A DNA stretch of 37,526 nucleotides from a virus. Positions 3,001 through 37,526 of this stretch are shown one piece after another. The stretch's first letter is position 1. Each line of letters opens with the position of its first letter. The stretch is from IMG/VR virus record IMGVR_UViG_3300045286_000091, positions 1-37,526 of that record; one strand, 5' to 3'. Below the pieces are notes generated by a model. The model was given only the letters and a program-made list of their open reading frames with translations, did not search any database and was not told the DNA's origin. The position numbers and the translations under genes are program-made.

Positions 3001-3780
3001 CCGTAGGGTGCCCCCGACCATGTTGGGCAGGAGCTCCGCGAGAGCGCCCGCGGACCGACCCAAGACGCGAAGCGACCGGGCGTCCTCGCCGTAGTCCCAG
3101 GGGACGAGGTCCTTCGCGAGCTCCCGGACGCGCGGTAAGTCGTCGAGCTTCTGCCCCTCCGCGGCGGCGGCCGCCCCGACCTGAGCCTCCTCGCGTTGCG
3201 CCATCCCGCGCTGGAACCGGCGTTGGATCGCGCCAGGGTGCCAGTCCCAGGAGCCGAGGCGGTCGTCGTACTCCCAGGAGCCGATCCACCAGGCGATCCC
3301 TTCGAGGCTGGCGACGTCGTCCGCCACGAGCGCGTGCCGGATCGGGTTCGCGAGCCAGTCGGCGAGGACGGGGTGGTCGCGGGTGATGCGGTTCCAGTCG
3401 ACCCCCTTCGTGCGCGCGAGCTGGCGCGCCTTCGGGAGATCCGAGGCGACGGCGTTAGGTGGGATGCCGGTGATGTACGACAGGCGGCCGACCTCGGCCG
3501 CGGTCTCCGGGTCTTCCTCGAGGTTTGCGTTGTACCACTCGAGGAACTTCGCCCGGGTGTCCTTGAAGACCTCGTCCTCCTGGTCGGCGTCCGCGAACGC
3601 CTTGTCGTAGTCCGAGCTCGAGAACTCCGGGCTCTTCGTGACGCCGGCGTCCTGGGCGTTCTGGTCGAGGGTGACGGTCGGTCCCTGGGGAGCGTCGGCC
3701 GCGGAAGGGTTCTCCCGAGCCTTCGGATCGGGCTCGAAGAGGCGGTCGTAGTCCTCGGCCGTGTACGTGGTCTCGGCCAT
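1..3780 (-). CDS. Giant gp16-like internal virion/ejection protein, N-terminal part (runs off left edge)
   Basis: I translated the minus frame by hand; it is open from an ATG at 3780 to base 1 (1260 codons) without a stop. The ATG directly follows the TAG of the gp15-like gene and has a GGGGAG ribosome site. The N-terminus is acidic and polar. A long Ala/Gly-rich hydrophobic stretch lies at about residues 250-305. A cysteine pattern is seen at Cys1034, Cys1076 and Cys1079 (CWYC). By position after gp13-, gp14- and gp15-like genes it corresponds to T7 gp16, which is ejected into the host at infection. I see no clear transglycosylase motif. The rest of the protein is probably the partial gene at the right edge of the window. 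The role comes from gene order and size, not a decisive motif. Confidence 0.8.
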   Translation of the reverse strand, partial: MAETTYTAEDYDRLFEPDPKARENPSAADAPQGPTVTLDQNAQDAGVTKSPEFSSSDYDKAFADADQEDEVFKDTRAKFLEWYNANLEEDPETAAEVGRLSYITGIPPNAVASDLPKARQLARTKGVDWNRITRDHPVLADWLANPIRHALVADDVASLEGIAWWIGSWEYDDRLGSWDWHPGAIQRRFQRGMAQREEAQVGAAAAAEGQKLDDLPRVRELAKDLVPWDYGEDARSLRVLGRSAGALAELLPNMVGGTLRGLKYGGAAAAAVAGAEAAAAVPTGGLSLLGIPISAATAFQTGYITGLALDTYQIENGAAYLEMLKEQKRRGGGEDPKTAAVASNVVGLINAGLEMMPGLAWLKLYVPYFRKLGKETLRTPAKEALKKYGLGLGREALEGAKSLAWETGTEAAQQLVTSTGRELSIWKGGGETQWSKLPSEAWGEFTGALEGMWLLSVLGMGQNVLGNYRNVQRARRNVLAMNQLAEVMKESKSVVRSPDAVEEVASELAKKSGAPPTLFAKLESWNRHFQEQNVDPREAAREVLGDTEAYDEATRLGAELAIPIEKWTAKIAPTEAHAALVQDVATEPGGPTLRESMDPFEAIGNETQAAVEEARKSSPADLTGPSLAVFEDWRSRAMVTGDPVEAEHSAMVMQAIMTRLADRMTRNGVPMTAIDIYNRYKVSVGAVDSSGLSKASGISETQMDLFRQGWDAATGTPPAPGLAPQELRDTGVDPVPSDALKPGMPVPYEAGAALTEDQRAGILGRAVDALEVAGQERKVVGYHPVTGQEVHDFVDSPDLYQKSDISGNPSRYYVQLPDGRKASPSELWPEITEDQVARAVRTRQSSYDGTEDFLRWDRVAPVGPGSVAAAAEAFRIERGSDKLAQAYRAQDRHGRTVYVDALDPGDVEYWELMGFRKVLKGASEVQAENRDAGERLRDEGLPGTDDGTLPGGPATGEGLSQTRDWQAWVEKLKANPEVRKRFSESDLESFIRGMEMTAMIFGDFQGVPLEGPGSPLRENLDPLFNLTFDITTACPRQDQYVATIIELERRLSRVFKTEERHLIGRMMKELGVAPACWYCYGQSARDAFDDAVTRNAAIVSEIQALQKKGQATEENLRRVMGYTPRKAGVGDPWIRPSGVGSRFMSWDGSLGSFVRANAKKLPKMDPVRLLGLIKGVVEPKSDLEAELADKIRGSAQVASMATTIKGWATYTNQVLRLSDDLFRRATEAAGFRLNSQTDYRPWHVMEVAEFLVHLSMRGGA

Positions 3781-5668: not shown

Positions 5669-6367
5669 TCACACCCCCACGAAGGATTCCGCGGCGAGGT
5701 TGTCGAACTTTCCCGAGAACATCCCCCTCACGAGCCGGTGCTGCCCAAAGAACGTGGAGGAGGTTCGCTCGTAGGCCTGTCTCGCTTCCTCGACGGACTG
5801 GATCGATTGGATCTGGTAGCCCCAGGCCTGCCGCGCGGCGTTGTTCGCGGCCTGGCGCGTGTCGTACGCGAGGGCCCTTGAGGTCGCGGAGATCTGGCTC
5901 GAGGCGCTGCCGGAGCCGACGTCCGCCCCGGAGCCTCCGTAGGCCGCCCCCTGCTGGCCCTGAACCGCGCCGCCCTGGAGCGAGAGCGCCTGGTTCGTGA
6001 CGTTGCCGACCTGGATGGCGTCCGTGGCCTGCTTCATCGCGAGCCGAGCGTTCGCGAGATGGAGCTTCGTGGACTTGATGTCCGCGGCCATCGCGGAGAT
6101 CGTCGAGAACGCGGCCGAGGTCCAGCTCACCGCCATCCCGGTATACATGATCCCCTGGCCGACGTTCGAGATCGCCTGACCGGCCGACTGGGACGCCGCA
6201 CCGGAGACTCCACCGGTCGCCCCGGTCGCCGACCCGGTACCTCCGGAGCCCATGAACGAGCTCGAGGGCGACGGGGTCGTGAAGTCGGCTCCGAACGATC
6301 CCGCCCCCGCGCTGGCGCCGGCGCCGGCGCCCGCCCCGGCCGCTGCTCCTCCTCCTCCGCTTCCCAT
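5669..6367 (-). CDS. gp14-like internal virion protein, second copy
   Basis: A 232-residue protein that begins with a Gly/Ala/Ser-rich low-complexity segment (residues 1-65). It then has a hydrophobic stretch at about 67-95 and a helical region, with a GADVGSGS turn and a helix with a WGYQIQSIQSVEEARQAYE pattern. The upstream neighbour (6378-6905) has the same architecture: Gly-rich start, hydrophobic helix, GADVSSGS turn, then a helix with QSQISSISEIEQWKSKL. The two are tandem paralogues. The layout is that of T7 gp14, a small membrane-active core protein ejected first. It starts 10 bases after the neighbour's stop. The role is inferred from architecture and order. Confidence 0.65.
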   Translation of the reverse strand: MGSGGGGAAAGAGAGAGASAGAGSFGADFTTPSPSSSFMGSGGTGSATGATGGVSGAASQSAGQAISNVGQGIMYTGMAVSWTSAAFSTISAMAADIKSTKLHLANARLAMKQATDAIQVGNVTNQALSLQGGAVQGQQGAAYGGSGADVGSGSASSQISATSRALAYDTRQAANNAARQAWGYQIQSIQSVEEARQAYERTSSTFFGQHRLVRGMFSGKFDNLAAESFVGV

Positions 6368-6377
6368 CGTCGTGCCC

Positions 6378-6905
6378 TCAGTACTCGAACTTCGCCCCGA
6401 GCGGTATCCCGGTGAAGAACCCGCCGTACAGGTCGGAGTTCGAGATGTTCCAGAAGTTGTTCATCGCGGAGTCGAGCTTCGACTTCCACTGCTCGATCTC
6501 CGAGATCGAGCTGATCTGGGACTGATACGCCTCCTTCGCCGCGTTCTGAACGATCTGCCGGGTGTCCCACTCGTTCAGGAGCGCGGTCGATGCCAGGGTG
6601 CCCAGGTAGGATCCGCTCGAGACGTCGGCACCGCTCGTGGCGTGCGACGCGGCGATCTGGCCCATCTCCTGGGTGTTCGACTCCCGGTTCTGCTCCGCGC
6701 TCGTGAGGCCGGCGCGCATCTGCGACGCGGCCTGCTTCTGGTAGAGCGTCGCGTTGACCAGGTGCTGCGAGGCCGAGAGCTTGTCTGCAGCGACCTGGTT
6801 CCGGGCGTCTTGAACGGTCGAGATCGTCTGGATCGCGCTCCCGACGGCCCCTAAAACCATCCCACCGACGCCCGAGTCGCCTCCGCTGCTACCGCCCGAG
6901 CCCAT
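6378..6905 (-). CDS. gp14-like internal virion protein, first copy
   Basis: A 175-residue protein with a Gly/Ser-rich start, a hydrophobic segment at about residues 12-30 and long amphipathic helices. It shares the GADVSSGS turn and the following helix with the downstream gene at 5669-6367. The ATG at 6905 has a good GGAGG ribosome site and overlaps the end of the gp13-like gene by 17 bases. Its place between gp13- and gp15-like genes fits a T7 gp14-type ejection protein. No enzyme motif is visible. Confidence 0.65.
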   Translation of the reverse strand: MGSGGSSGGDSGVGGMVLGAVGSAIQTISTVQDARNQVAADKLSASQHLVNATLYQKQAASQMRAGLTSAEQNRESNTQEMGQIAASHATSGADVSSGSYLGTLASTALLNEWDTRQIVQNAAKEAYQSQISSISEIEQWKSKLDSAMNNFWNISNSDLYGGFFTGIPLGAKFEY

Positions 6906-18642: not shown

Positions 18643-18893
18643 GCGTCCTCCTTTGCGTCGGGATCCACAGGTCCCGGGATTAGGATAACGTCTTCTTCGT
18701 CGATTCGATCCAAAACCTCCTCGAACTCGTGCTCGCGGAAACATGGGTTCATCCGGTCCCTCGCCTCGTTGGCGCCTCGCATGATGAGAGCGATCGCGAG
18801 GTACTGGAGGTGTTGGTCGATGTCCGTGAGAATCCGCAACAGAGGCTGAAGATCGACTTGGTTTCCGTCCCATCGGGCGAAGTTCTGGCTCAT
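18564..18893 (-). CDS. Unknown early protein
   Basis: A 109-residue protein starting MSQNFARWDGNQ at the ATG at 18893 (TGATG overlap with the methyltransferase). Its ribosome site is part of a 25-bp repeat also found in front of the methyltransferase gene. Residues 1-80 form plausible helices (LQPLLRILTDIDQHLQYLAIALI, then HEFEEVLDRIDEEDVILIP). The last 25 residues are Ser/Pro/Asp low complexity because they overlap the membrane-peptide gene in another frame. No family recognised. Confidence 0.6.
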   Translation of the reverse strand: MSQNFARWDGNQVDLQPLLRILTDIDQHLQYLAIALIMRGANEARDRMNPCFREHEFEEVLDRIDEEDVILIPGPVDPDAKEDACSTSDGPSRSSSSPPPDTSPGSTSR

Positions 18894-18915
18894 CACCGCT
18901 CCCCCTTCTCCGCGT
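18891..18915. repeat. 25-bp direct repeat at gene junction, copy 1
   Basis: Identical to 19406-19430. It covers the last codons of the methyltransferase gene (ending Glu-Lys-Gly-Glu-Arg-stop), the ribosome site and the GTG/ATG start of the next gene. Confidence 0.9.
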
Positions 18916-19408
18916 CTCCGATCCGCATTACCGGCCCGCGCGAGGCATTCGTCATCGCACCGGTACCTGGAAACAGGTCGTCCAGCGTGTCACCATGTTT
19001 CCAGCCCAGAACATCCAGCACCCACCGGCAGAAAGACTCCGGTTTGGCACCGCAGAGCCCTTTCTTCAACGTGACGTTAGCCGAGTGCCAATCTCGCACA
19101 GTTGCCTCATATCGACTACGCTTACGGCCACCGTAGAAGATCACGGGTTCCCAGGCGTAGGCCGGATTGACGTTTGGCTTGAACACCGCAAATGGTTTGA
19201 CCCACGCACCAACCCGGGCGGTTTCAGGGCACGCCAGGTAGATCCACCGCAAGTCTTTAGAGTTACAGCTGAGCGCCCAGCCATCGGGATATTCGCGAAC
19301 GAGTCGACTCACCAGCTCCAAGTGCGCTTCTTTCGAGTCGAACGTGGGATCTCCGTAGTGGAATTTAGCTGAGCCTAAATAAGGTGGATCAGCATAGGCG
19401 AATTGCAT
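18893..19408 (-). CDS. Beta-class DNA methyltransferase (N6-adenine or N4-cytosine)
   Basis: A 171-residue enzyme with the catalytic DPPY at residues 7-10 near the N-terminus. The SAM-binding FPGTG (146-150) is near the C-terminus, preceded by an AKPESFCRWVLDVLG helix. The order catalytic motif, target region, SAM motif is that of beta-class amino-methyltransferases. No restriction enzyme lies nearby, so it is an orphan that may protect phage DNA from host restriction or mark it. The ATG at 19408 overlaps the upstream stop as ATGA. The gene is visibly less GC-rich than its neighbours, which suggests later acquisition. At 171 residues it is short but holds both key motifs. Confidence 0.85.
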   Translation of the reverse strand: MQFAYADPPYLGSAKFHYGDPTFDSKEAHLELVSRLVREYPDGWALSCNSKDLRWIYLACPETARVGAWVKPFAVFKPNVNPAYAWEPVIFYGGRKRSRYEATVRDWHSANVTLKKGLCGAKPESFCRWVLDVLGWKHGDTLDDLFPGTGAMTNASRGPVMRIGDAEKGER

Positions 19409-19430
19409 CACCGCTCCCCCTTCTCCGCGT
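19406..19430. repeat. 25-bp direct repeat at gene junction, copy 2
   Basis: Identical to 18891-18915. It covers the end of the Cys-rich gene (again Glu-Lys-Gly-Glu-Arg-stop), the ribosome site and the methyltransferase start. The two copies bracket the methyltransferase gene exactly. Confidence 0.9.
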
Positions 19431-19710
19431 TGCAGCCGCATCGACACCCGACTCGCGGGGCGGCGAGGCAGCTGGGAGCATGACGTATCGGCCTCTCGTA
19501 CTTGGGCGTGCGTTTGATGCACACTTGGCATTCCCACGTCTCGTCGCCGCCGTCCCTCATGCAGATGTCACCGAGCGCCCCGTGCAGCTTCTCGGCCTCG
19601 GCGGTCAGGCGGTCGAACTCAGCCAGGATGCGATCGCGTTCGTTAAGAGCACCCATGCCTGCGCCATGTTGTACAACGTCAAGGGCAAGGGTTAGATCGT
19701 CGCGTGTCAC
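19408..19710 (-). CDS. Cys-rich small protein, possible zinc binding
   Basis: A 100-residue protein starting at a GTG (19710) that overlaps the upstream stop as GTGA. The N-terminal half is a helical, charged segment (LNERDRILAEFDRLTAEAEKLHGAL). The C-terminal half has CQVC, then a CLAAPRVGCRCGC cluster, with one His between, consistent with one or two metal sites. It ends GCNAEKGER, like the methyltransferase downstream, because both ends lie in the same 25-bp repeat. Function unknown; a recruitment or nucleic-acid binding role is possible. Confidence 0.65.
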   Translation of the reverse strand: MTRDDLTLALDVVQHGAGMGALNERDRILAEFDRLTAEAEKLHGALGDICMRDGGDETWECQVCIKRTPKYERPIRHAPSCLAAPRVGCRCGCNAEKGER

Positions 19711-20081: not shown

Positions 20082-20363
20082 TCAGTCCCTCACGAACTCG
20101 TCGAGCCTCCGCTCCAGCGTCTTCGAGTCCTGGAGCTTCGCCGGCGCCCTCGACTTGAAGTAGTCCTTCTGCGCGTCGCGCACGCCTCGCACGAGCGAGC
20201 GCAGCTGCACGTACTCCTCGAGGAGCAGCGCGGCCTCGAGGATCAGGTCGCGCTGCTCGTGGGTCAGGAGAGGTTCTTTCGTTCCGGGCCGGGTCCAGCT
20301 CTTTTCGAGCGTGGTCGAAACGGCCTCCCGGAGCTCGAACACGACCGCGATCGGATCCCTCAT
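20082..20363 (-). CDS. Helical early protein, unknown
   Basis: A 93-residue, nearly all-helical protein (IAVVFELREAVSTTLEK; LTHEQRDLILEAALLLEEYVQLRSLVRGVRDAQKDYF), ending DEFVRD. Its ATG overlaps the upstream stop as ATGA. No motif points to a function. Confidence 0.65.
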   Translation of the reverse strand: MRDPIAVVFELREAVSTTLEKSWTRPGTKEPLLTHEQRDLILEAALLLEEYVQLRSLVRGVRDAQKDYFKSRAPAKLQDSKTLERRLDEFVRD

Positions 20364-20650
20364 GGAGTGCCCTTCTTCTCTTCTTCGGCGGACACCATCC
20401 TGTACCCGAACGCCTCGGGACCCTTGTTCCCGAGGACGATCTCGTGCGTGATCGCGCTCTTGTACAAGTCCAATCCCATCTTCATCGCGAGGGTGGGATC
20501 GATGACGGTCACGAGCATCTCCTTTCCCATCTGAAGGCCCAAGACGATTCCGGGCCCCGCGAACCCCACGAGGACGTCCGACTCCTGCAGCCGGTACCCT
20601 TCGACCGAGAGCTTCTCGCCTAACTCACCCAGATTCAGTTTGTCGCTCAT
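20360..20650 (-). CDS. Tandem paralogue B, unknown
   Basis: A 96-residue protein starting MSDKLNLGELG at 20650, with GGAGG seven bases upstream and an ATGA overlap with the gene before it. The segment VLVGFAGPGIVLGLQMGKEMLVTVIDPTLAMKMGLDLYKSA aligns without difficulty to the neighbour at 20647-20916 (IVGMDDHGVVLAFKMQDGTVALKNMPSVIAIELALKILQCG): strand, G-[IV]-VL, strand, then a helix. Both end in acidic tails. They arose by duplication. No known family is recognised; the mixed alpha/beta size fits a small binding domain. Confidence 0.7.
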   Translation of the reverse strand: MSDKLNLGELGEKLSVEGYRLQESDVLVGFAGPGIVLGLQMGKEMLVTVIDPTLAMKMGLDLYKSAITHEIVLGNKGPEAFGYRMVSAEEEKKGTP

Positions 20651-20916
20651 GATTCTTCCTCCTCTGTGATTTCCTTGTAGCCCTGGAGCGTGAACCCTAG
20701 TTCCTTGAGGCCCTTCCCCTTGACCACCACATCGAACGTCAGCCCACACTGAAGGATCTTCAGCGCGAGTTCGATCGCGATTACCGAGGGCATGTTCTTC
20801 AGCGCGACGGTTCCGTCCTGCATCTTGAACGCCAGGACGACACCGTGGTCGTCCATCCCGACGATGGTGTGTTCCCCGATGGTGGAGTGATGCTGAAAGC
20901 TCTGGATCTCGCTCAT
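20647..20916 (-). CDS. Tandem paralogue A, unknown
   Basis: An 89-residue protein starting MSEIQSFQHHS at 20916, with an ATGA overlap with the Tad1-like gene. It is a paralogue of the next gene (20360-20650), sharing the G-x-V-L strand pair, a conserved helix and an acidic C-terminus (EITEEEES). It is co-transcribed with the Tad1-like gene and may share an early anti-host role, but this is context only. Confidence 0.7.
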   Translation of the reverse strand: MSEIQSFQHHSTIGEHTIVGMDDHGVVLAFKMQDGTVALKNMPSVIAIELALKILQCGLTFDVVVKGKGLKELGFTLQGYKEITEEEES

Positions 20917-21500
20917 CGCTCGTACTTCCCGAGGACGCCGCGGCTCGCCCGCTCGCGCGCTCTCAAGCGCAGGTAGTCCCGCGCCATGATCAGAGCCTCG
21001 AGCGCGTCGGCGTTCTGTCGGCACGCGTACTGCCCGGCCTGGAACCCCTCGAGGCGATCGATCAGGATCTCGAGGAGGACCGCCTCCGTGATCCCGGGTG
21101 TCGATCCGGGTTCGTTCCGGGGGCCCTTCTGGAAGACCGCCAGGGCCACCGTGTGGATCGAGACGCGCCCCTCCCTGCCGTCGACGCGGATGCGCGCCTC
21201 GTAGGCGTGCGCGGCGCCCCCGGGCCCGATCTCGTCGGACACGAGATCGATCGAGTCGTTCAGGCCGAACCCATCGTGATGGCCGACGAGGCGCCGGCAG
21301 GGCGCGACCCAGGGGATCAGCTCGATCTGACCGCCGGCCTGGAGCTTGGGCCCCGGGAGTTCGTTGCCGGTGAGCTGCGCGATCTCCTCGAGGGCTGCGC
21401 TCTTGAGCTTCTCGAGGATCGCGTCGTTGGCCTTCACGGCGTCGGGGTGAGCGGTGATCGTGGGATCCGTTTCGTTCTGGTTCTCGTTTTCGCCTGGCAT
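20913..21500 (-). CDS. Tad1/Acb2-family-like protein (candidate anti-defence signal sponge)
   Basis: A 195-residue protein. Residues 98-195 follow the pattern I recall for the Acb2/Tad1 phage family: a strand segment, VFQKGPRNEPG (122-132), ITEAVLLEILIDRLEGFQAG (137-156), C160, N163, then two helices ending RASRGVLG (184-191). Phe153, Asn163, Arg180 and Arg184 have the spacing (10, 17, 21) of ligand-binding residues Phe82, Asn92, Arg109 and Arg113 of Tad1, as I remember them. Tad1 and Acb2 sequester cyclic signals made by Thoeris and CBASS. The N-terminal 55 residues are acidic and less conserved. The ATG at 21500 has AGGAGA upstream. It lies in the early operon, apt for anti-defence. Ligand and activity are unproven. 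Confidence 0.7.
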   Translation of the reverse strand: MPGENENQNETDPTITAHPDAVKANDAILEKLKSAALEEIAQLTGNELPGPKLQAGGQIELIPWVAPCRRLVGHHDGFGLNDSIDLVSDEIGPGGAAHAYEARIRVDGREGRVSIHTVALAVFQKGPRNEPGSTPGITEAVLLEILIDRLEGFQAGQYACRQNADALEALIMARDYLRLRARERASRGVLGKYER

Positions 21501-21546: not shown

Positions 21547-22293
21547 CTACCTGTTTCCTCGGTTTTTCCGAGGTTTTCCCGTAGTAACCTCTACCTGGGA
21601 GCTGACTCGTGCACCCGCGCGCGCATGTCTCCCCCTTTCAGTTCTGTTCAGTTCAGTTGTCGGCGCGACTTTCGCCTGGGTCCCCTGACGCCTGTGGAAA
21701 TCTTCGACCTCCTTCTCTAAGTGATACTTCTCGTGGAACTTACCTACGATCACAGGATCGTTCACCAGCGAGATTTCCACAGCCGCAGCACGACGTAAAG
21801 GCGAAAGTAACTGCGGTGACGTGAAACCGACCTCGAGGCGGTACTTGCCCCTCACGAAGACGTATCCTGAGGCCTCGTTCCAGTCGATAAGTCCTTTTCC
21901 ATCAGGCTTTTTGAAGGATACGAGGGAGTGCCAGAGGGACCCCGAATACATTTCTATCCAGGGGCCTCTCGCTCTCACGAACTCATCGGGAGTTCTATCG
22001 AGGGGCCTCTCGAATTCATGCCAACAATTCAAACTACGAATGGCCGAAAGGTGACAAGCGACCTGTTGCCTATGGTCCCGTTCTCTTACCGCCTTGTAGC
22101 GGGCCTTCGACTCGTGGAGGTGCGGTACGAATCGGTGAGGGATCTGCCGAGGTCCGCACGCGAACACTCCCGAGACCCCACAGTGGGGGTTCGTGAACAA
22201 CCAGACGTAAAGCGCGAGCTGATGCAGGGACAGTTCATCGACGCAGGGGTCATCCCAAAGCGACGGCATGATCTTGTGGTATCGTGCCCTCAC
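21547..22293 (-). CDS. Replication-initiator-like protein (phage O / replisome-organiser type)
   Basis: A 248-residue protein starting at a GTG (22293) with GGAGG five bases upstream and a GTGA overlap. Residues 1-48 (RYHKIMPSLWDDPCVDELSLHQLALYVWLFTNPHCGVSGVFACGPRQI) are the winged-helix start typical of phage replisome organisers. A second aromatic-rich segment follows at 95-150. The C-terminus (from about 205) is basic and disordered, with Thr, Arg and Lys, fit for DNA. It is less GC-rich than its neighbours. Such proteins bind iterons in or near their own gene and load the host helicase. A 20-bp repeat pair lies inside this gene (21952-22012). No helicase-loading domain is clearly visible. 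Confidence 0.6.
   Translation of the reverse strand: MRARYHKIMPSLWDDPCVDELSLHQLALYVWLFTNPHCGVSGVFACGPRQIPHRFVPHLHESKARYKAVRERDHRQQVACHLSAIRSLNCWHEFERPLDRTPDEFVRARGPWIEMYSGSLWHSLVSFKKPDGKGLIDWNEASGYVFVRGKYRLEVGFTSPQLLSPLRRAAAVEISLVNDPVIVGKFHEKYHLEKEVEDFHRRQGTQAKVAPTTELNRTERGRHARAGARVSSQVEVTTGKPRKNRGNR
21952..22012. repeat. Two-copy iteron-like direct repeat inside the initiator gene
   Basis: A 20-base unit, TTCTATC-[C or G]-AGGGGCCTCTCG, occurs at 21952-21971 and 21993-22012, period 41, with one mismatch. As 41 is not a multiple of three, the copies are translated in different frames, so protein similarity cannot explain them. Origin iterons are one explanation. Confidence 0.75.
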
Positions 22294-23900: not shown

Positions 23901-24076
23901 CGTGGGACGTCAGGGTCCGCGTGACGATTCGAGGCCGCGCGAAGACGCATCGCTGGATCGTCCCCGCGGCCGACGCGCGATCTGCAAGAACGAAGATTCT
24001 TCGGCGCTTTCGGGATCTCTTTCCCGGTGACGTGAAAATCGAGATCCGTAGCGTCCTGCCGAGGTGTCTGCCATGA
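23870..24076 (+). CDS. Small beta-alpha-beta protein, paralogue 1
   Basis: A 68-residue protein starting at a GTG (23870) with GGAGG eight bases upstream. The layout is two strands (VRVRVTIRGR; THRWIVPA), a helix beginning DARSARTKILRRFRDLF, and a last strand VKIEIRSV. The gene at 24622-24861 has the same layout and a similar helix/strand pair (DVDGARRHARRLAKKMYPSAKVRVLKV), so the two look like distant paralogues. It ends in an ATGA overlap with the ribbon-helix-helix gene. Highly basic; function unknown. Confidence 0.6.
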   Translation: MGLENLFNPVTWDVRVRVTIRGRAKTHRWIVPAADARSARTKILRRFRDLFPGDVKIEIRSVLPRCLP

Positions 24077-24255
24077 CGACCGTGAGGGTTGAGGTCGTCC
24101 TGCCGCGCGAGCTCTACCTCGAGCTCACGAAGCGCGCGAAGGCGAAGGGCATGACGGTCGGTCAGTTTCTACGGAACGCCGCGGCCACCGAGCTCAGGCT
24201 CCCGCGCTCGTCCTTCCAGCTTCGCCCCGGACGCCCCCCCAAGCCTGCCGCCTGA
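24073..24255 (+). CDS. Ribbon-helix-helix DNA-binding protein
   Basis: A 60-residue protein. It has the ribbon-helix-helix pattern: a strand (VRVEVVLPREL), helix one (YLELTKRAKAK), a G-M-T turn and helix two (VGQFLRNAAATELR), followed by a basic Pro-rich tail. The ATG at 24073 overlaps the preceding stop as ATGA; a GTG nine bases earlier is possible. Such proteins bind as dimers to short inverted repeats, and a perfect 9-bp inverted repeat around a promoter starts 12 bases after its stop (24267-24304). It is a natural candidate regulator of the cassette. Confidence 0.7.
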   Translation: MTTVRVEVVLPRELYLELTKRAKAKGMTVGQFLRNAAATELRLPRSSFQLRPGRPPKPAA

Positions 24256-27620: not shown

Positions 27621-30600
27621 TCACGCGGCGATGCGGACCGCGGTCAGGTTGGCGTGCTCGACGACGACGGCATTCGTCGCCGTGTGGTTCGTGACGCAGA
27701 GCTTCAACAGATCGTTGACCGCCAGGGCCACGACGGCCGTGCCGGAGATCGAATAGGGCTTGTTCGCGGTCGGGACCTGCGTGTGGTTCGTGGAGTTCGT
27801 CTGGCGAGTCGAGTTGACCATCACCGCGCCGGCGACCTCCTGGTTAGCGTTGCCGACGTTCACCGACATCGACCAGTGAACCATGTACTTGCCGGCGGTG
27901 AGGCACTTGAGTTCCTTCGAGTTCTGGGCCGTCATACCGTTCGATCCGCCGTCCGAGAGCGAGCCTCCTACTTCGTAGTAGGTGCCGGCGGACGAGATCG
28001 TCACGCTCTGCGAGATCTCGTCGCCGTAGAGGCTGCCGTAGGTCAGGAGGGGACCGGAGATGAGGCCGACGGTCCCGAGCCCCACGAGCGCGTCCCCGGT
28101 CGGCTGGGCCGCCGGCGCCGTGTTGTAGAAGCCGAGGTTCGTGGACTGGACCTTGAAGTTCGTCGCCCCGATGTCGATCGTCGCCGCGGCGCTGGAGCCG
28201 ATCCAAGCGTTCGTGTCGCGGATCGCGATCGCCTTGTACGCCGCCGTGGCATTCGCGAGGAAGATCCCATAGTTCGTAGAGCCGCGGGTCTGCTCCTCGA
28301 TGTAGAGCCCGTTGAGCGTTGTGACCGCGTGCCCGCTCGACATCGAGGGCCAGTTCTCGATATAGCCGCCGTAGCCGCTCGTGACCGTGCCCGCGTTCTT
28401 CGTCGTGGCGGGAGCGGTCACGCGCCACCCGCCCCATTCCGCATACGTCTTGCCGGAGTTGGCGACCGCAGCGTCGTTGGCCCGGAACATCGCGCCCACG
28501 AGCCCGGTCGGGGTCGAGCCTGCTCCGACAGTGCCTTGACCAGCGCCGAATGTGCCACCAATGACGTACCCGGTCGGCTGGCCGCCCGAGGCTCCCACGG
28601 TCTTGAAGAGTCCACCCGCGATAGTGTTCGCTTTGCCGAGGATGGTTGTGCCTGTTGACGTCGTACTTGACGGGGAGAATGAGATCCCGAGCGCCTGGGA
28701 GATCGCCCCGATGACGCCGATGTAGTAGCCGGTTGCGCTCCCCGAGGCCGATCCGCCAAACAGCCACGAACCGTCGGAATAGACCTTGACGGCCGAGGTC
28801 CCTGCGGAGTTCTGAATCTCGAAGAGTTGGCGATCCGTTCCCGCGGTCAGGGCCACGCTGGGCTTGATAAGAACCGAGACCGCGTTCGCAGCGTCGGCGA
28901 CGCTCGAGTCGATTAGACCGGAGGTCCCGAGGCTGATCCCGGCGTTGTGCACGTCCTTCGCGCTGAACGTGTGCGCTTGGGTCCAGGTCGGGGTGATCGC
29001 CTGGGAGAGCGCCGGAGCGGCATCGGAACGCATATACGTGGTCGCGCTGCCGTTCGTCGCCGAGAGGCCGATCGTGGCCGACGGGTTCGCGGAGTTCGCG
29101 GTCAGCATGATCGTGCCGCTCGCGTCCGGGAACGTGTAGTCGCGGTTTCCACTCAGGTTGTAGATCACGAACCGTCCGGAATAGCCGCTCAGGTTCGTGT
29201 CGATCAGGTACAGGTTGCCTTCGCGCGAGAGCTCCATGAGGGTGTAATCGATCGAGGAGCGCGTGATCGTCCAACGGGTGTGCGCGCCGTAGTTTCCCTG
29301 AGGCGGAGGCGAAGGGTTGTAGGCGCCGTCCGCGTACACCTTGTGGAACTCGAACCCCGGCTCCCCGAACGTCGCGTACGACCTGGAATGCAGGGCGAGC
29401 TGACTCGTCGAGGTCCCGAGGTCGGTGTTTCGGAGCGAGTAGCCGGAGGATCCGAAACCATCGACCGTGATGCCACCCGAGACCCAGACGCTTGCGTCAG
29501 CCGTCCCGGTCGCCGGCGTGATCTCGAGGAGCGAGTTGTCCAATTCGTCGACGACCGAAAGGATCGCCGCAGTTTGACTGTTGATCCCCTTCAGGGTCAG
29601 CGTCGTTTCGGTGGTCGACTGGGTGACGAGAGTTTGTGGCCAGGTGATCGTGTTGCCGCCGATGTCCTTGTAGACGGGATCGCCATTACCATCGAAGTCG
29701 GAGAGCAGGAGAAGCTGCCCGTGGTTCGTCAGGAAAGCGATCTCGATGTCGGCGTAGGTCGGGGATTCCGTCGGGCGATGCGACCACCAGGAGGTGTGCC
29801 TCGTGTAGTCCGCGTACCACCCGGAACCCACCGCCGCGTTGCGAACGTCGGGATTCGTGAATTGCCCCGTGTTGGGGTAGTAGGTCCGGGTGAAGTTGAA
29901 CGCCGCGTAGGACCGATCGGCCGCGCTCGAGAAGTTCATCGCCGCGTTGCCGGCGCCTAAGGGAGCCCCGTTCGTATCGGTGTTCCACAGGTGCGCGTGA
30001 CCGTGCGTGTACGTGGGCTTCACCGATCCGGTCGTGATCGCGACCGGAACCTCCGGTCCCTCGGTGTTCGCGTTCGCGCCGCTGAAGATGACGCCCTGAT
30101 CGAACTGCTGGCCGATCGTCCACTGATTCTTGTGCCCGAGGTTCAGGTCGGCGTTGTACGAGGGCGAGGATCCCGTGACCGTCAGGGTGCCGCCCGTCGA
30201 GGTCAGGCTGATCGAGGAGAGCTTCGAGTTGAACGTGCTCCAGTCGGCCGAGGACAGGTAGCCGCTTTGCCCGGAGCTCGCCTGCTGCACCCGGATCGTC
30301 GCCCCGCTCCCGATCACGGCTCCGGTCCCGCCCGAGATCGTCAGGACGCTCGAGGTGACCTCGGACAGGTTGCCGGTGGTCAGGGTCGGCTGGATTCCCG
30401 CCTGAGAGAGCGTGTTCCACTCCGGAGCGGCGCTCACGGTGCCGGTCCCGGTCTGCGTCAGGATCTTCTTCGTCGCGTCGGTGTTGCCGTCGAGCGTCGT
30501 CCAGGTCGACGGGGACCCAGGCCCGCCGTAGATCAGCTTGCCGAGGACCGAGGCCTGGGACGTTGTGTCGCCGTGCGAGCTGCCGTTCAAAAGGTTGTGC

Positions 30601-32831
30601 GCGCTGGGCGCCCAGCTCGAGGGCGCCCCGTGAACGTGATCGATCCGAGCGGCCGTCTCGGCCGTGCCGGCGGCCGCCGAGGCCCCCGCGGAGATCGTGC
30701 CCGGGGTCGTCGCGTCGAAGAGCGCCTTGTAACCGGGTTCCGTGTCACCGTTCGCTGCGCCGAGGTAGTTCCTAAAGGTCGCGGCCGGCGCGTTGATCGC
30801 GAGGCGGGTCCACAGGGGCGTCGATCCCTGCGCGCTGATCAGGTCGCCGCGCGCGAGCGCCGGCGTGGTCGCCGCCTGGGTGTTGTTGTGCACGGACCCG
30901 TCGAGGAAGTTGTGGGCACCGGGAGCCGCCCCTGAGGTCGCCGTGATCGTGATCGATCCGGCCGCGTTCGAGATCGAGATCCCGGTCCCCTGCGTCAGCG
31001 TCGCGAGCGTGAACCCGGACCCGTTCCCGATCAGGAGCTGCCCGTTCGAGGCGCTCGAGGCGTTGACCCCGGTCCCCCCGCCCGAAACCCCGAGGATCCC
31101 CGTGGTATCGGTCGCGAGATCGATCGCATTGCGGGTGATCTGCTGGCCTGACAGGGTGATGTAGTCGAGCGAGCCCGCGAGCGTGACGGGCGCGTGGGGC
31201 TCGACAAGCGTCGGGGTGGTCCCCTGCCACGCGTACAGGTACCCGTCCTTGTCGACGTAGGTCCTCAGGGTCGAGTTGCCCGTAATGGTCTTCCGCCACT
31301 CCGTGGCGTTCGCGGTCTGGGTCTCGAGGAGGTCGACCCTTACGGGGAGATCTCCGGCGACCGAGGAGCCGACGTTGAGCTGCGCGAGCGGGGCGTCGGC
31401 GACGGTACGGCCGATCCCGACGCGCTCCGTCTCGGTCGCGGCAAACCAGAGCTCTGCCTTCGTCGTGTCGTAGATGTGGATCGCTTCGCGACCCGTGGGC
31501 GCCTGGTACCCGACGTAGTTGTACTTGGTCTTGAGGTACGTTAGGACGGTTTCGATCTGACTCGAATTTAGAGGGGTCAGGAAGACGATGACCTCGGCGT
31601 ACCAGTGGGATCCGTAGACGTACGTGTCGGGTGTCTGCGACTCGTTGAAGTTGAAGAACTGGGCCATGTACGAGTACGCCGAGACCTGTGCATCCGTGAC
31701 AGTTTCCGTGAGGTGATACGGAACATCGTCCATGAAATGGTCGATCGTGCTCGACCACGGCCGGAACTGCCAGTAGTGGATCTTCCAGTTCTGAACGCCG
31801 GGCATCGCGGTGTTGGAAAGCTTCTTGTAGCCGAAATGCGTTCCGTAATTTCGAGGATAGGCAACGACCTCACTGCTCGAGAGCGTGGTCCCAAGAGAGA
31901 AGAAAGAGCCCACGTTGTAGTTACCCGGGGTGATCTCGAGGTGGACCGTGCCGAATACGGGTAGCGCGCCCGCGCCGGCTGTCGCGGACCCCACGACGAA
32001 GATCGTCGCGTTCTGGATTCCGATCCATCCCCCGGTGATCGAATACCCGCTGCTTCCGATACCGGAGAAGTATCGCCCGGAGTTTGAGCCGGGGATCGCG
32101 GTCGGGTGCCGGTCGCCGTCGTTCGAGTGGGACCAGTAGATCCGCATCCCGCCCTGGGGCCCGAGAATCCCATGCCGCCCGTTCCCCGACTTGTCGTTGA
32201 GGCTCGTGACCTCCTGGCCTTCCGAGTACCCGTCGTAGTACGACTCCTGCGCGTCGTACCAGAGGTCCGGGTGAAGGTCGACGACCGGCTGATCGCTCAC
32301 GATCCCCGCGGAAGGAGCGATCGTGAGCCAGGCGTCCGGATCCGCGTTGATCCCGACGCTTCCGGTCGGGTCGACGACGACGTAGTCGTACGAGTCCGAG
32401 TGGATTCTGAGGAGGTTCGCGGACTGGCTCGAGGCGGCATCGATCGTCAGCGCCGTCCGGGCGGCTGCGACCGCGATCCGGAGCTGGCCGTACTCGTCGA
32501 TCTCGAGAAGGGTCGAGGAGGACTTCGTGACCAGGAATCCCGGCTCCGTGGCCGAGGCGTTGAGGTCGATCGTGATCGCCGTCTTGCCGGCGACCGTCTG
32601 CCAGGTCTTGGCGCCGGTGATCGTCTGATCGGTCCCGGTGGACACGAACCCGGTGTGGTTCGCGTTCGCGTAGTCGAGGTTGTCGAGGATCGCGTGGTCG
32701 TCGGTGCCCGTTCCGGCGCCGCCTGAGACCTCGAGCCACTGGGGCCGCTTCGCGAGCTCCTTGATCGCCTTCGAGCGACGGTTCTCGTCGGGCCCCTGAA
32801 ACGATCTACGAACCGGCCGGTTTACCGGCAT
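27621..32831 (-). CDS. Giant tail fibre with LamG-like and C1q-like domains
   Basis: A 1736-residue protein. The ATG at 32831 has AGGAG seven bases upstream and overlaps the holin-like gene by 26 bases; an earlier in-frame start lies inside that gene. Residues 1-80 have a TDDHAILDNLDYANANHTGF attachment-type segment. Residues about 185-440 look like a concanavalin/laminin-G-type lectin domain (WYDAQES; LNDKSGNGRHG; HWYAEVIVFLTPLNSSQIETVLTYLKTKY). The middle is built from Gly/Thr/Ser-rich shaft repeats (GGGTGVNASSASNGQLLIGNGSG). The last 135 residues resemble a C1q/TNF-like jelly roll (SAGTYYEV...AGKYMVHWSMSV...GTAVVALAVNDLLKLCVTNHT), probably the receptor-binding head. Confidence 0.85.
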   Translation of the reverse strand: MPVNRPVRRSFQGPDENRRSKAIKELAKRPQWLEVSGGAGTGTDDHAILDNLDYANANHTGFVSTGTDQTITGAKTWQTVAGKTAITIDLNASATEPGFLVTKSSSTLLEIDEYGQLRIAVAAARTALTIDAASSQSANLLRIHSDSYDYVVVDPTGSVGINADPDAWLTIAPSAGIVSDQPVVDLHPDLWYDAQESYYDGYSEGQEVTSLNDKSGNGRHGILGPQGGMRIYWSHSNDGDRHPTAIPGSNSGRYFSGIGSSGYSITGGWIGIQNATIFVVGSATAGAGALPVFGTVHLEITPGNYNVGSFFSLGTTLSSSEVVAYPRNYGTHFGYKKLSNTAMPGVQNWKIHYWQFRPWSSTIDHFMDDVPYHLTETVTDAQVSAYSYMAQFFNFNESQTPDTYVYGSHWYAEVIVFLTPLNSSQIETVLTYLKTKYNYVGYQAPTGREAIHIYDTTKAELWFAATETERVGIGRTVADAPLAQLNVGSSVAGDLPVRVDLLETQTANATEWRKTITGNSTLRTYVDKDGYLYAWQGTTPTLVEPHAPVTLAGSLDYITLSGQQITRNAIDLATDTTGILGVSGGGTGVNASSASNGQLLIGNGSGFTLATLTQGTGISISNAAGSITITATSGAAPGAHNFLDGSVHNNTQAATTPALARGDLISAQGSTPLWTRLAINAPAATFRNYLGAANGDTEPGYKALFDATTPGTISAGASAAAGTAETAARIDHVHGAPSSWAPSAHNLLNGSSHGDTTSQASVLGKLIYGGPGSPSTWTTLDGNTDATKKILTQTGTGTVSAAPEWNTLSQAGIQPTLTTGNLSEVTSSVLTISGGTGAVIGSGATIRVQQASSGQSGYLSSADWSTFNSKLSSISLTSTGGTLTVTGSSPSYNADLNLGHKNQWTIGQQFDQGVIFSGANANTEGPEVPVAITTGSVKPTYTHGHAHLWNTDTNGAPLGAGNAAMNFSSAADRSYAAFNFTRTYYPNTGQFTNPDVRNAAVGSGWYADYTRHTSWWSHRPTESPTYADIEIAFLTNHGQLLLLSDFDGNGDPVYKDIGGNTITWPQTLVTQSTTETTLTLKGINSQTAAILSVVDELDNSLLEITPATGTADASVWVSGGITVDGFGSSGYSLRNTDLGTSTSQLALHSRSYATFGEPGFEFHKVYADGAYNPSPPPQGNYGAHTRWTITRSSIDYTLMELSREGNLYLIDTNLSGYSGRFVIYNLSGNRDYTFPDASGTIMLTANSANPSATIGLSATNGSATTYMRSDAAPALSQAITPTWTQAHTFSAKDVHNAGISLGTSGLIDSSVADAANAVSVLIKPSVALTAGTDRQLFEIQNSAGTSAVKVYSDGSWLFGGSASGSATGYYIGVIGAISQALGISFSPSSTTSTGTTILGKANTIAGGLFKTVGASGGQPTGYVIGGTFGAGQGTVGAGSTPTGLVGAMFRANDAAVANSGKTYAEWGGWRVTAPATTKNAGTVTSGYGGYIENWPSMSSGHAVTTLNGLYIEEQTRGSTNYGIFLANATAAYKAIAIRDTNAWIGSSAAATIDIGATNFKVQSTNLGFYNTAPAAQPTGDALVGLGTVGLISGPLLTYGSLYGDEISQSVTISSAGTYYEVGGSLSDGGSNGMTAQNSKELKCLTAGKYMVHWSMSVNVGNANQEVAGAVMVNSTRQTNSTNHTQVPTANKPYSISGTAVVALAVNDLLKLCVTNHTATNAVVVEHANLTAVRIAA

Positions 32832-33045
32832 CCCCGTTCTCCTGCGCCTCGTGAGTCTTGACGTTGCCCCACACGAACGTGCCGTAGATCCCGGTGAGAG
32901 CGGCCCCGATCCCGCCGCACATGACCCCGAGGGCCGTCGGATCGGACCCGGCCGTGATCCCACGCCGGCAGAGATCCCAGGAGACGGCGAGGAAGAGGCA
33001 TCCTACGATCGCGCCCGCGAGCATCTTGCGGTATCCGCGGATCAT
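32806..33045 (-). CDS. Holin-like two-helix membrane protein
   Basis: A 79-residue protein starting MIRGYRKMLAG at 33045 with an ATGA overlap. Two hydrophobic segments (residues about 8-24 and 37-58), a short charged linker (DLCRRG) and a polar, charged C-terminus fit a class II holin that opens the inner membrane to release endolysin. The position two genes after the endolysin supports this. Readings of the frame upstream of 33045 cross the neighbour and have no membrane character. Confidence 0.65.
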   Translation of the reverse strand: MIRGYRKMLAGAIVGCLFLAVSWDLCRRGITAGSDPTALGVMCGGIGAALTGIYGTFVWGNVKTHEAQENGDAGKPAGS

Positions 33046-33781: not shown

Positions 33782-34300
33782 CTACGCTCCGGTGGTCGCG
33801 AGCGTGACCGCGGAGTAGGTCCCGGCCGCCGCTTGCAGAATGATCTTGAGCGTCGACTCGCCGTCGGGGTCGCGGGTGATGTAGACGAGGCCCGCGTTCG
33901 CCGCGTTGGCAGTCGGGGCGGACCCGGTACCGTAGATCGGGATCTTGCCCTGGGAAGCGATCTGCAGCGCCAGGCGATCGAACGCCTCCTCGATCACGTC
34001 CGCGAAGACAACGCCCTGGTTCTTGAAGTCGACCGGCTGGCCCGGCGTCGTGCGCCTCGAGATCCGGATCGTGTAGTCCTCGGTCAGGTTCTCGCTCAAG
34101 ACCACGGTGGCCTGACCCGAGGGCCCGTCACCGGTGATCGTGTAGTCCTCGCCGAGCGCGAGCGTGCTCTCGTTCAGGCCGCGCTCGTCCCAGACCACGA
34201 CTTCGATCTCGGTCAGATCGTGAAAGGGCATTCCGACGTCGTAGTTCTTGACGCTACCGGTCGCGACGTACTCCGTGCGTGTGGACATCTCTTCGATCAT
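33782..34300 (-). CDS. T7 gp17 N-terminal-domain-like fibre adaptor
   Basis: A 172-residue protein. The N-terminal 115 residues follow the T7 tail-fibre N-domain pattern: TEYVATGSVKNYDVGMPFHDLTEIEVVVWD, then LALGEDYTITG, then YTIRISRRTTPGQPVDFKNQGVVFADVIEEAFDRLALQIASQ. That domain docks fibres on the tail. Here it is a separate gene, with a short beta tail (PDGESTLKIILQAAAGTYSAV) in place of a shaft, so it likely serves as an adaptor for the 1736-residue fibre. The ATG at 34300 has GGAGGA and overlaps the giant gene's stop (ATGA). Confidence 0.85.
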   Translation of the reverse strand: MIEEMSTRTEYVATGSVKNYDVGMPFHDLTEIEVVVWDERGLNESTLALGEDYTITGDGPSGQATVVLSENLTEDYTIRISRRTTPGQPVDFKNQGVVFADVIEEAFDRLALQIASQGKIPIYGTGSAPTANAANAGLVYITRDPDGESTLKIILQAAAGTYSAVTLATTGA

Positions 34301-37300
34301 CGGTTCCTCCTCCGCACGAACAGGACGTCGTGCGCGAATTGCCAGAACGATTCGGGATCCTCTTCACCCGTGAAGACGTCCCACAGGTATTCGCCCGTGA
34401 TCAGCGGTTGCTGCACCGGCAGGCCCGTCGCGTAGCCGACGGCTCGAATCTGCCTCTTGACGTACTGCTTGTCGGCCTCGATGCTCCCGGTGGCGAGCGA
34501 GATGTTGGCCTTGCCGGCATCGACGATCTGCTCCGCGACTTGGGCGATCGGGCCGTACTTGATGTCGCGCGGTGGAAGTCCCGCGATCCAGGTCTCGAGC
34601 GAGTTCGCGATATCGCGGAGGAACGGCACACACAGGAAGGGGAAGAACAGGATCTTCCGGAGCGACCAACCGACCCAACCCTCGCCCCGATCCTCGTCGG
34701 GAGTCCGGCCCGAGAGCAGCTCCGCGAGCACCGCCTGCCCGACCCACAAGAACCACGTCCGAGCGAGCAGGTGCGGGAACTCCCTCGCGAGCCGCCCTTC
34801 GCGCTTCGCCTGGACCGCATCGAATCCGATCGCCCTTCCGCGGTTGTAAACCGAGTTGAAGAACGAGTAGAAGATCGTGAGCCACTTCAGGAACTCCGAG
34901 TTGCGCTGCACGTTGGCGAGGTCCTTAGCCGCCCCCGACCCGAGCCCCAAGCGGACCTTCCGATCCGCCTCGGCGATCGCGAGCTCCTCGGTCATGCCCT
35001 CCTGGTCGAGCGCCTGGTAGTACGCGGCGAGCCAGGTCGGGTACGCGATCGCAGCGTCCGTGATCGCGCACCCGTACATCGCGAAGCGCATCACCTCGTT
35101 GCGGAGCCCGGAGCGTCCTGCGATCCGGTCGATCGCGATCCGGGTATCGCGCTCGTTGCGGGCGAACCGGTACTTCATCATTTTCGACTTCGAGTGCACG
35201 AGCTCGATCGAAGTCTTCATGCCCCCTTCGCGCACGTAGAACCGCGTCATGCCCTTGCGGAGGTAGTTGGCGCCCCCCTTCCCGAGCACCTCGAGTGCGC
35301 TGAAGACGTTCGCGAAGTTCTGGAGCGTGACCGTGGCCTTGAACCCCATCGCCACGATGACGTTGTTGCGCCGGCCCCAGCGGGAGATCCGGATTAGCAT
35401 CTTCTCCGCGTTCGACTGGTCGATGTTCGCGTCGTTCGCGACCCCACGGAGCCATTCGTCGAACTGCTTCGCGTACTGCGGGCCAAAGTACCGGTCCATC
35501 GCGCGCCGAACCTCGGGATCCGAGATGATCTTGTGCGCGGAGAGCACGGCCTCGCGGTGCGTCAGGTCGTGGATCACGCTGCCGAGGTGATTCGTGAGAA
35601 CGCCGAGCGAGAGTGCCAGGGGCTCCGAGAAGTTCTCGACGCGCTTGATGACGTGACCGTGCGGCGTCATCGCTCGCGCGTGGTTGTGCTCGAAGAGCAC
35701 CCCGGTCTCCTCGCCGGCGTTCAGCTGACGCCTCGCGGCCCAGCCGTGCTCTCGATGGTCGTACTTCAGAGGGTAGTAGCCGCCCCGGTACGTCTTCTCG
35801 GTTCCGTCCTTGAACCGGCGCGTGAACCCGACGGCTTCGACCTTGGGAGGGGCGACGCCCGTCAGGCGCTCCTCGAGGGCCGCGACTTTCGGCCAGAGCT
35901 CCTTGTCGAGCAGGTCCCAGATTTCTTGAACGAAGTCCCAATCCGATTGATCGAGCACGGACAGGCACTGCTCGATGACCTCCGGACCCCAGTTAAGCGC
36001 CGGGGTTGGCTTGCCGTCGATCAGGCGCTGCATGTTCTGTTCGTTGCCGGAGTTCAGCGCGACCGCGAGGAACCACTGGTAGGGCATCGACTCCCCGATC
36101 GAGTCGATAAAGAACTCCTTCCCGAACTTCTCGGACCTGACGTCGATCTTCTCGACGATCTCCATCATCTTCGCGGCGAGATCGGTCGCGAGCTGGTCCG
36201 CGGCGTTCTGGGCCGCGTTGAACGGCTCGAAGAAGATCCTCGACCAGGCTCCGTTGATGTTACCGGCGTCGGCGCGACGTACCAGCTCCTCGATCTTCAA
36301 TAGCGCCGCGTCGCCCGACTTGATCGCGTTCAGGGCCCTCTCGAGGGCCTTCGCGGAATCCGGCGACACGGCGAAGAGGCCCTTGTCGGACAGGTTCGCC
36401 TGCAGGCTCGAGATGAGCTCCGTCTTGACCGTCTCGAACGCGCGCTTCGACTTGAGCGTCAGGAGGGAGTTCTTGAGGGACGCGAGGTGGACGACGTTCT
36501 TCAGGTTGTCCCTAAGCTCGTAGAGCTCGTCGGGCGTCATGTCGAGGTAGGACTTCCGGTACGCCTCGTCCATGAGCTTCGGGGAGATGATCGGGTCGAG
36601 CCCCTTCGCCTTCTGCTCCTCGATCCACTCCCTCAGGGTCTGCCGGCGCTCCAGCTGCGAGATCGGCTTCGGCTTGAATTCCGTGCGCTCCAGGAGGTCG
36701 TCGACCTGGTCGAGGTAGTTCTTGCCGGCGAGCCCGAGGGCGCGACGCCGGCGCTCCGTCGTCCAGGAGAAGCAGAACCGGGTGGCGACCCCGGTCTCCT
36801 CCTCGATCTGAACGGAGGTGCGGTAGAGCTGGAAGTTCCAGAGCTGGAGGAGCTTCTCGTCCCAGGCCTTCGCCCACTGCTGTTTCGCAGCCGCTTCGAA
36901 CGCCGCCGCGGCGTGCTTCCGCTCCGCGCGCAAGTACTGATAGGACTTGATCTTGCGAATCGGGGTTCCGAGGAGGTACTTCGAGGCGTCGGCCGCGAGG
37001 CGCTTCCGGTCGATCGACATCGCCTGCCCGGTGCGCTCCGACCGCTTGCCGGCGATCCGCGCCAGGACGCGGAGCTCCCCGAGGAGCTGGGTGCCCCGGG
37101 CGTCATTGTGAGCGGCCTTGACCGCTTCCCGTCGGAGTCGAGCGGCGTCCTCGAAAAGGCCGGGGTACCTGGCCTTCATCCGCTTCGTCACCTCGAGCGA
37201 CTTGGCGCGCTCTAGGGGCGTCGAGTCGATCAGAGACGAGATCAGGTCCTGGCCGTTCTTGAAGCCGAACGCGGCCGCGACGACCTCGGGGTCGAGACCT

Positions 37301-37526
37301 CCCTGCCGCTCGTACACGTACGGCCTCGGGAGCTTCTTGAGGATCTCCTCGCCGTACCGCTCGACCAGGATCGCCCTCGAGAGCTTCGCGGGCTTGCCGC
37401 CGGGGCCCTTCAAGACGTCGGGGACGTCGACGCCGGCGTCGATCGGGGTCAGACGCTGCAGGTAGTACAGGGCGCGCGGGACGGGGTTCTGGCGCAGCTC
37501 GCGGTCGACCACCAGCTCGATGGCCC
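34297..37526 (-). CDS. Giant gp16-like ejection protein, C-terminal part (runs off right edge)
   Basis: The frame is open to the right edge; the first codons in the window read A-I-E-L-V-V-D-R-E-L, so the N-terminus lies outside. About 1075 residues remain. The region with YRGGYYPLKYD, then LTNHLGSVIHDLTHREAV and later FLKWLTIFYSFFNSVYNRGRAIGFDA resembles large podoviral virion/'polyvalent' proteins (LPD38-like end). Hydrophobic segments lie near the C-terminus (FLWVGQAVLAELL; ILFFPFLCVPFL). The gene is followed by the fibre adaptor with an ATGA overlap, as T7 gp16 is followed by gp17. It is probably the second half of the gene at 1-3780. Confidence 0.8.
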   Translation of the reverse strand, partial: AIELVVDRELRQNPVPRALYYLQRLTPIDAGVDVPDVLKGPGGKPAKLSRAILVERYGEEILKKLPRPYVYERQGGLDPEVVAAAFGFKNGQDLISSLIDSTPLERAKSLEVTKRMKARYPGLFEDAARLRREAVKAAHNDARGTQLLGELRVLARIAGKRSERTGQAMSIDRKRLAADASKYLLGTPIRKIKSYQYLRAERKHAAAAFEAAAKQQWAKAWDEKLLQLWNFQLYRTSVQIEEETGVATRFCFSWTTERRRRALGLAGKNYLDQVDDLLERTEFKPKPISQLERRQTLREWIEEQKAKGLDPIISPKLMDEAYRKSYLDMTPDELYELRDNLKNVVHLASLKNSLLTLKSKRAFETVKTELISSLQANLSDKGLFAVSPDSAKALERALNAIKSGDAALLKIEELVRRADAGNINGAWSRIFFEPFNAAQNAADQLATDLAAKMMEIVEKIDVRSEKFGKEFFIDSIGESMPYQWFLAVALNSGNEQNMQRLIDGKPTPALNWGPEVIEQCLSVLDQSDWDFVQEIWDLLDKELWPKVAALEERLTGVAPPKVEAVGFTRRFKDGTEKTYRGGYYPLKYDHREHGWAARRQLNAGEETGVLFEHNHARAMTPHGHVIKRVENFSEPLALSLGVLTNHLGSVIHDLTHREAVLSAHKIISDPEVRRAMDRYFGPQYAKQFDEWLRGVANDANIDQSNAEKMLIRISRWGRRNNVIVAMGFKATVTLQNFANVFSALEVLGKGGANYLRKGMTRFYVREGGMKTSIELVHSKSKMMKYRFARNERDTRIAIDRIAGRSGLRNEVMRFAMYGCAITDAAIAYPTWLAAYYQALDQEGMTEELAIAEADRKVRLGLGSGAAKDLANVQRNSEFLKWLTIFYSFFNSVYNRGRAIGFDAVQAKREGRLAREFPHLLARTWFLWVGQAVLAELLSGRTPDEDRGEGWVGWSLRKILFFPFLCVPFLRDIANSLETWIAGLPPRDIKYGPIAQVAEQIVDAGKANISLATGSIEADKQYVKRQIRAVGYATGLPVQQPLITGEYLWDVFTGEEDPESFWQFAHDVLFVRRRNR

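What the first reader, a model, noticed from the sequence alone, without database searches (positions are those of the whole stretch)
20913..21500. Candidate Tad1/Acb2-like anti-defence sponge
The C-terminal half has the family pattern FQKGP…NE…LL-x-I-x-x-x-RL-x-x-FQ-x-G…C-x-x-N…RGV. Phe153, Asn163, Arg180 and Arg184 have the spacing I recall for Tad1 ligand residues 82, 92, 109 and 113. Proteins of this family bind cyclic ADP-ribose isomers and cyclic oligonucleotides from Thoeris and CBASS. The form here has an acidic 55-residue N-terminal extension and a diverged end (RGVLGKYE).
Basis: partly seen in the sequence, partly recalled or inferred. Interest (0 to 1): 0.72.

Follow-up and report, generated by a model that had tools for sequence, protein, structure and literature searches.

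The report
Phage Tad1 immune-signal sponge, extended
This is a phage gene for a Tad1 protein, a known kind of molecular sponge that soaks up the alarm molecules bacteria use to trigger anti-phage suicide; it is an ordinary family member apart from an unusual 67-residue extra piece at its front end.

Summary
The minus-strand ORF 20913-21500 (195 aa, with an AGGAG ribosome-binding site 5 nt before its ATG) encodes a genuine Tad1. It matches Clostridium botulinum prophage Tad1 (CbTad1) by sequence over residues 86-192 (phmmer E 2e-14; the reversed sequence gives nothing). The AlphaFold model has the Tad1 fold (four strands plus two long helices). The top 20 Foldseek hits are all Tad1 chains, and VIA-align gives Z 13.4 over 124 residues. 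In a tree of 81 rows the gene falls with the CbTad1 branch (99/94). F153, N163, R180 and R184 align with CbTad1 F82, N92, R109 and R113 and are nearly or fully invariant in the family. The end 'RGVLGK' is not decay; it is typical of the CbTad1 branch. It is Tad1, not Acb2, and PF24729 does not score it. The most likely function is sequestering TIR-made cyclic ADP-ribose isomers (Thoeris) and probably CBASS cyclic oligonucleotides. Binding, hexamer formation and the role of the extension are untested. The host is a BPP-1/BcepC6B-like podovirus; sampled terminase relatives show no Tad1 near that gene, so it looks accessory.

The parts
20913..21500 (-). tad1-like gene, 195 aa
21300..21500 (-). 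67-residue N-terminal extension, predicted helix 19-44, no relative found
   Evidence: codon-position GC 0.69/0.40/0.88 like the core; helix 19-44 with pLDDT about 85; no relatives in IMG/VR and only E 0.4 in phages
20916..21299 (-). Tad1 core, residues 68-195: four strands and two long helices
21506..21510 (-). AGGAG ribosome-binding site 5 nt before ATG 21500
   Evidence: read directly
21042..21044 (-). Phe153 codon, equivalent of CbTad1 F82
21012..21014 (-). Asn163 codon, equivalent of CbTad1 N92
20961..20963 (-). Arg180 codon, equivalent of CbTad1 R109
20949..20951 (-). Arg184 codon, equivalent of CbTad1 R113
20647..20916 (-). downstream gene dn1 (89 aa, unknown), ATGA overlap with the tad1 stop
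   Evidence: paralogue of dn2
20360..20650 (-). downstream gene dn2 (96 aa, unknown), ATGA overlap with dn1
20082..20363 (-). downstream gene dn3 (93 aa), ATGA overlap with dn2; PHROG_15937, unknown function
21547..22293 (-). upstream gene, weak DnaD/replisome-organiser match (E 0.03-0.06), 46 bp before tad1

Best explanation
The gene encodes a Tad1 sponge. During infection the protein would assemble, as CbTad1 does, into a hexamer (three dimers). It would bind TIR-made cyclic ADP-ribose isomers (gcADPR, also called 2'/3'cADPR) in pockets built from F153, N163, R180, R184 and the C-terminal tail, and probably bind CBASS cyclic trinucleotides at separate trimer-interface sites. By holding the signals without cutting them it would keep ThsA or CBASS effectors off, and the host cell would not kill itself. 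Shown here: homology, fold, conserved pocket residues and placement with CbTad1. Inferred from the family: oligomer state, ligands and anti-defence effect. The N-terminal 67 residues (flexible acidic start, one helix, loop) are an add-on of unknown role.
For: phmmer E 2e-14 to CbTad1 over residues 86-192 and 7.5e-5 to phiKZ gp184; the reversed control is empty. PHROG_2428 E 4.8e-20. AF2 model with mean pLDDT 82.5 and E70-75 E84-88 E99-107 E113-123 H139-155 H161-186. Foldseek top 20 are all CbTad1 or CmTad1 chains, including complexes with gcADPR and cA3 (best E 3.7e-9, TM 0.81 by target), and the next hit is E 0.2. VIA-align Z 13.4, 2.5 A, 124 of 125 residues of 7uaw. The tree puts the query with L009-L011 (97/93) beside the CbTad1 clade (99/94). 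Key residues are conserved. The gene has a good RBS and coding composition. The family description (four strands plus two helices, hexamer of dimers, gcADPR and CTN binding) is from PMC12043709.
Against: No binding or infection data. Identity to the nearest solved member is only about 34%. The query has a long branch (2.35 changes per column). PF24729 does not reach it. The extension could disturb or cap assembly. The host and its defence systems are unknown.
Confidence: 0.88

Rival explanations
1. It is a Tad1 that has lost gcADPR binding or narrowed to cyclic oligonucleotides only, so it is chiefly an anti-CBASS (or anti-Panoptes/type III signal) sponge.
For: Tad1 homologues differ in ligand range (PMC12043709). 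The query branch is long.
Against: F153, N163, R180 and R184 are all kept, and the query groups with CbTad1, which was solved with gcADPR.
Confidence: 0.07
2. It is a virion-carried Tad1: the N-terminal extension places the sponge in the particle so that it enters the cell with the DNA, as with phiKZ gp184.
For: phiKZ gp184 has a Tad1 domain behind an N-terminal extension of about 110 residues and is injected (PMC10449902, PMC13282480). Lactococcus phage 1706 orf71 is annotated as a structural protein.
Against: No sequence similarity between the two extensions. The gene lies behind a replication-like gene, not among head genes. Nothing else points to packaging.
Confidence: 0.06
3. The Tad1 fold is kept but used for another nucleotide-binding role in phage biology unrelated to defence.
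For: No function was tested. Tad1 relatives sit in very varied gene neighbourhoods.
Against: All characterised members of the branch are anti-defence sponges. The gene is accessory: no Tad1 within about 7 kb of the terminase gene in 77 terminase relatives.
Confidence: 0.05

Closest known systems
CbTad1, Clostridium botulinum prophage Tad1 (PDB 7uav, 7uaw, 8smd, 8kbe, 8kbf)
   Same: Fold, about 34% identity over the core, four pocket residues, FQKG...VLG signature, phylogenetic branch
   Different: No 67-residue N-terminal extension; 125 aa; RNVLGT rather than RGVLGK end
CmTad1 (PDB 8kbb-8kbd, cAAA and cAAG complexes)
   Same: Same fold, 25% identity
   Different: More distant; no comparable extension seen in the solved chain
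phiKZ gp184 (PHIKZ184, Tad1)
   Same: Tad1 domain with an N-terminal extension; R180 and R184 equivalents kept
   Different: Tyr in place of F153; 230 aa; the extension is unrelated in sequence; it is virion-injected
IMG/VR Tad1 proteins L009-L011
   Same: 52% identity; share FQKGPRNE.GSTPG.TEA and RGVLGK
   Different: 119 aa, start at the position of query Cys68, no extension; a different phage context with RecA-like and MazG-like neighbours (names from reading the translations, no profile run)
Acb2
   Same: Two-helix hairpin with cyclic-nucleotide sponge function
   Different: No beta-sheet; not matched in sequence or in fold searches

Membership tests
Tad1 | Significant sequence similarity to characterised Tad1 over the core | tested here: met
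   phmmer E 2e-14; BLASTP to SBSphiJ7 Tad1 E 2e-14 as a single comparison
Tad1 | Four-stranded antiparallel sheet followed by two long helices | tested here: met
   AF2 model; Foldseek and VIA-align to Tad1 chains
Tad1 | Residues equivalent to CbTad1 F82, N92, R109, R113 | tested here: met
   that these four contact the ligand is recalled knowledge, and no held paper confirming it was found
Tad1 | Groups with characterised Tad1 in a tree | tested here: met
   99/94 clade with CbTad1; the query branch is long
Tad1 | Hexamer of three dimers | not testable with these tools
   only single-chain prediction available
Tad1 | Binds gcADPR and cyclic oligonucleotides; blocks Thoeris or CBASS | not testable with these tools
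   needs binding and plating assays
Pfam PF24729 Acb2_Tad1_hairpin model | Match above the curated score of 27 bits | tested here: not met
   no match at E<=10; CbTad1 fragment scores 35 bits. The protein is therefore not filed under this Pfam entry, although it is a Tad1
Acb2 | One short and two long helices, no beta-sheet | tested here: not met
   the model has four strands before the helices

The most novel reading that the evidence does not exclude
A Tad1 with a helical N-terminal add-on that docks the sponge to a partner (virion interior or another phage protein), giving a small podovirus a pre-delivered or localised immune-signal trap, evolved separately from phiKZ gp184.
Probability: 0.07. 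Interest if true: 0.5.

Novelty: new member of a known kind. Interest (0 to 1): 0.27.

Why it matters
It adds a Tad1 in a BPP-1/BcepC6B-like short-tailed phage, in a form that PF24729 misses, so censuses based on that model may undercount the CbTad1-like branch. The N-terminal extension is a concrete, testable oddity.

Tried and rejected
An alternative start that would remove the extension: the only in-frame ATG/GTG/TTG codons are Met1, GTG22 (no ribosome-binding site upstream), GTG87, GTG118, ATG172 and TTG179, and codon 68 is TGC, so the extension stands. Homology of the extension: none in IMG/VR, only E 0.4 in phages to a DNA polymerase I stretch, none with the phiKZ gp184 extension. Long N-termini in other family ORFs (L024, L032, L050, L058 and others): judged to be mis-called upstream starts, because the canonical 'MR.I..H' start lies inside them. 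PADLOC and NCBIfam: no hits. Plasmids: no match. Downstream gene dn1: structure prediction failed (pLDDT 49), so no fold search was made. Acb2 label rejected on fold. Literature confirmation of the four CbTad1 ligand residues: no held paper found.

Full report
Observation. The ORF is at 20913-21500 on the minus strand and encodes 195 residues. AGGAG lies 5 nt before the ATG. Codon-position GC in the first 67 codons (0.69/0.40/0.88) matches the rest of the gene (0.73/0.47/0.91), so the long N-terminus is coding.

Identity. phmmer against PDB sequences finds Clostridium botulinum prophage Tad1 at E 2e-14, CmTad1 at 1.5e-5 and phiKZ gp184 at 7.5e-5. The reversed protein finds nothing. PHROG_2428 matches at 4.8e-20. 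Pfam PF24729, NCBIfam and PADLOC give nothing, although PF24729 does recognise CbTad1.

Fold. An AlphaFold2 model on a 48-sequence alignment of viral relatives (mean pLDDT 82.5) has four strands and two long helices in residues 70-186, plus an extra helix at 19-44. Foldseek's first 20 hits are all Tad1 chains (E 3.7e-9 to 6.7e-5), and the next is E 0.2. VIA-align gives Z 13.4 over 124 residues at 2.5 A for 7uaw, with model residues 67-195 covering the whole known protein. [quoted passage not shown]

Pocket residues. F153, N163, R180 and R184 align with CbTad1 F82, N92, R109 and R113. Across 81 aligned rows F153 is F in 78, N163 is N in 79, and R180 and R184 are R in all 81; Q124, G126 and Q154 are also invariant.

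Relatives and phylogeny. IMG/VR holds over 200 relatives detectable with two short peptide patterns. Many are 118-135 aa and start near where query Cys68 lies. The nearest, L009-L011 (52%), share FQKGPRNE.GSTPG.TEA and RGVLGK. The tree puts them with the query (97/93) beside a clade that holds CbTad1 and the Oscillospiraceae genes L167/L168 (99/94); the members compared have a slightly longer loop and a VLG end. The extension was not found in any other protein searched.

Setting. The record is a virus of 37.5 kb with small and large terminase subunits, T7-like connector, tail tubular and internal virion proteins. Its major capsid protein is 47% identical to Burkholderia phage BcepC6B and 44% to Bordetella BPP-1. 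tad1 lies between a gene with a weak replication-protein match and terminase, and is followed by three small genes that each start on an ATGA overlap with the gene before. The first two of these are paralogues of each other. None of 77 loci around related terminase genes carries Tad1 in the DNA held (up to about 7 kb on each side, less for short contigs), so it looks accessory. Host and host defences are unknown.

Mechanism. Best reading: a sponge that holds TIR-made cyclic ADP-ribose isomers, and probably cyclic oligonucleotides, and so blocks Thoeris and CBASS suicide. Homology, fold, residues and branch are shown; binding, hexamer and effect are inferred. The extension might be inert, might tune assembly, or might deliver the protein in the virion as for injected phiKZ gp184 (PMC10449902, PMC13282480); there is no direct evidence for the last.

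Verdict. It is a new member of a known family with one odd feature, and of modest interest.

Noticed in passing
window 20360-20916 (-): Two small tandem paralogues (dn1, dn2; blastp E 5e-5) directly behind tad1 and coupled by ATGA overlaps, with no relatives in IMG/VR by single-sequence scans. They could be further accessory or anti-defence genes.
   Followed up: partly
window 1-3780 and 34297-37524 (-): Both ends of the record match the same giant PHROG_9880 protein, so the record is cut inside that gene; joining the ends does not keep the frame exactly.
   Followed up: no
window 27621-32963 (-): A 1780-codon ORF with strong coding composition but no Pfam or PHROG match, close behind a T7-like tail-fibre N-terminal gene; possibly a very large receptor-binding protein.
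   Followed up: no
window 5669-6367 and 6378-6905 (-): Two adjacent genes both match PHROG_418 (internal virion protein), a possible duplication.
   Followed up: no
L169:886-1578, L003:3866-4219: Tad1-family proteins are recorded as structural in two unrelated phages: phiKZ gp184, shown to be injected (PMC10449902), and Lactococcus phage 1706 orf71. Virion carriage of Tad1 may be more common than thought.
   Followed up: partly
window 18893-19537 (-): Protein with weak DNA methyltransferase (D12-like) matches.
   Followed up: no
window 24064-24255 (+): Arc-like ribbon-helix-helix repressor candidate in a cluster of small plus-strand ORFs.
   Followed up: no
window 20913-21500 (-), against Pfam PF24729: The Pfam Acb2_Tad1_hairpin model recognises CbTad1 but not this member of the same branch, so it may undercount Tad1.
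   Followed up: partly
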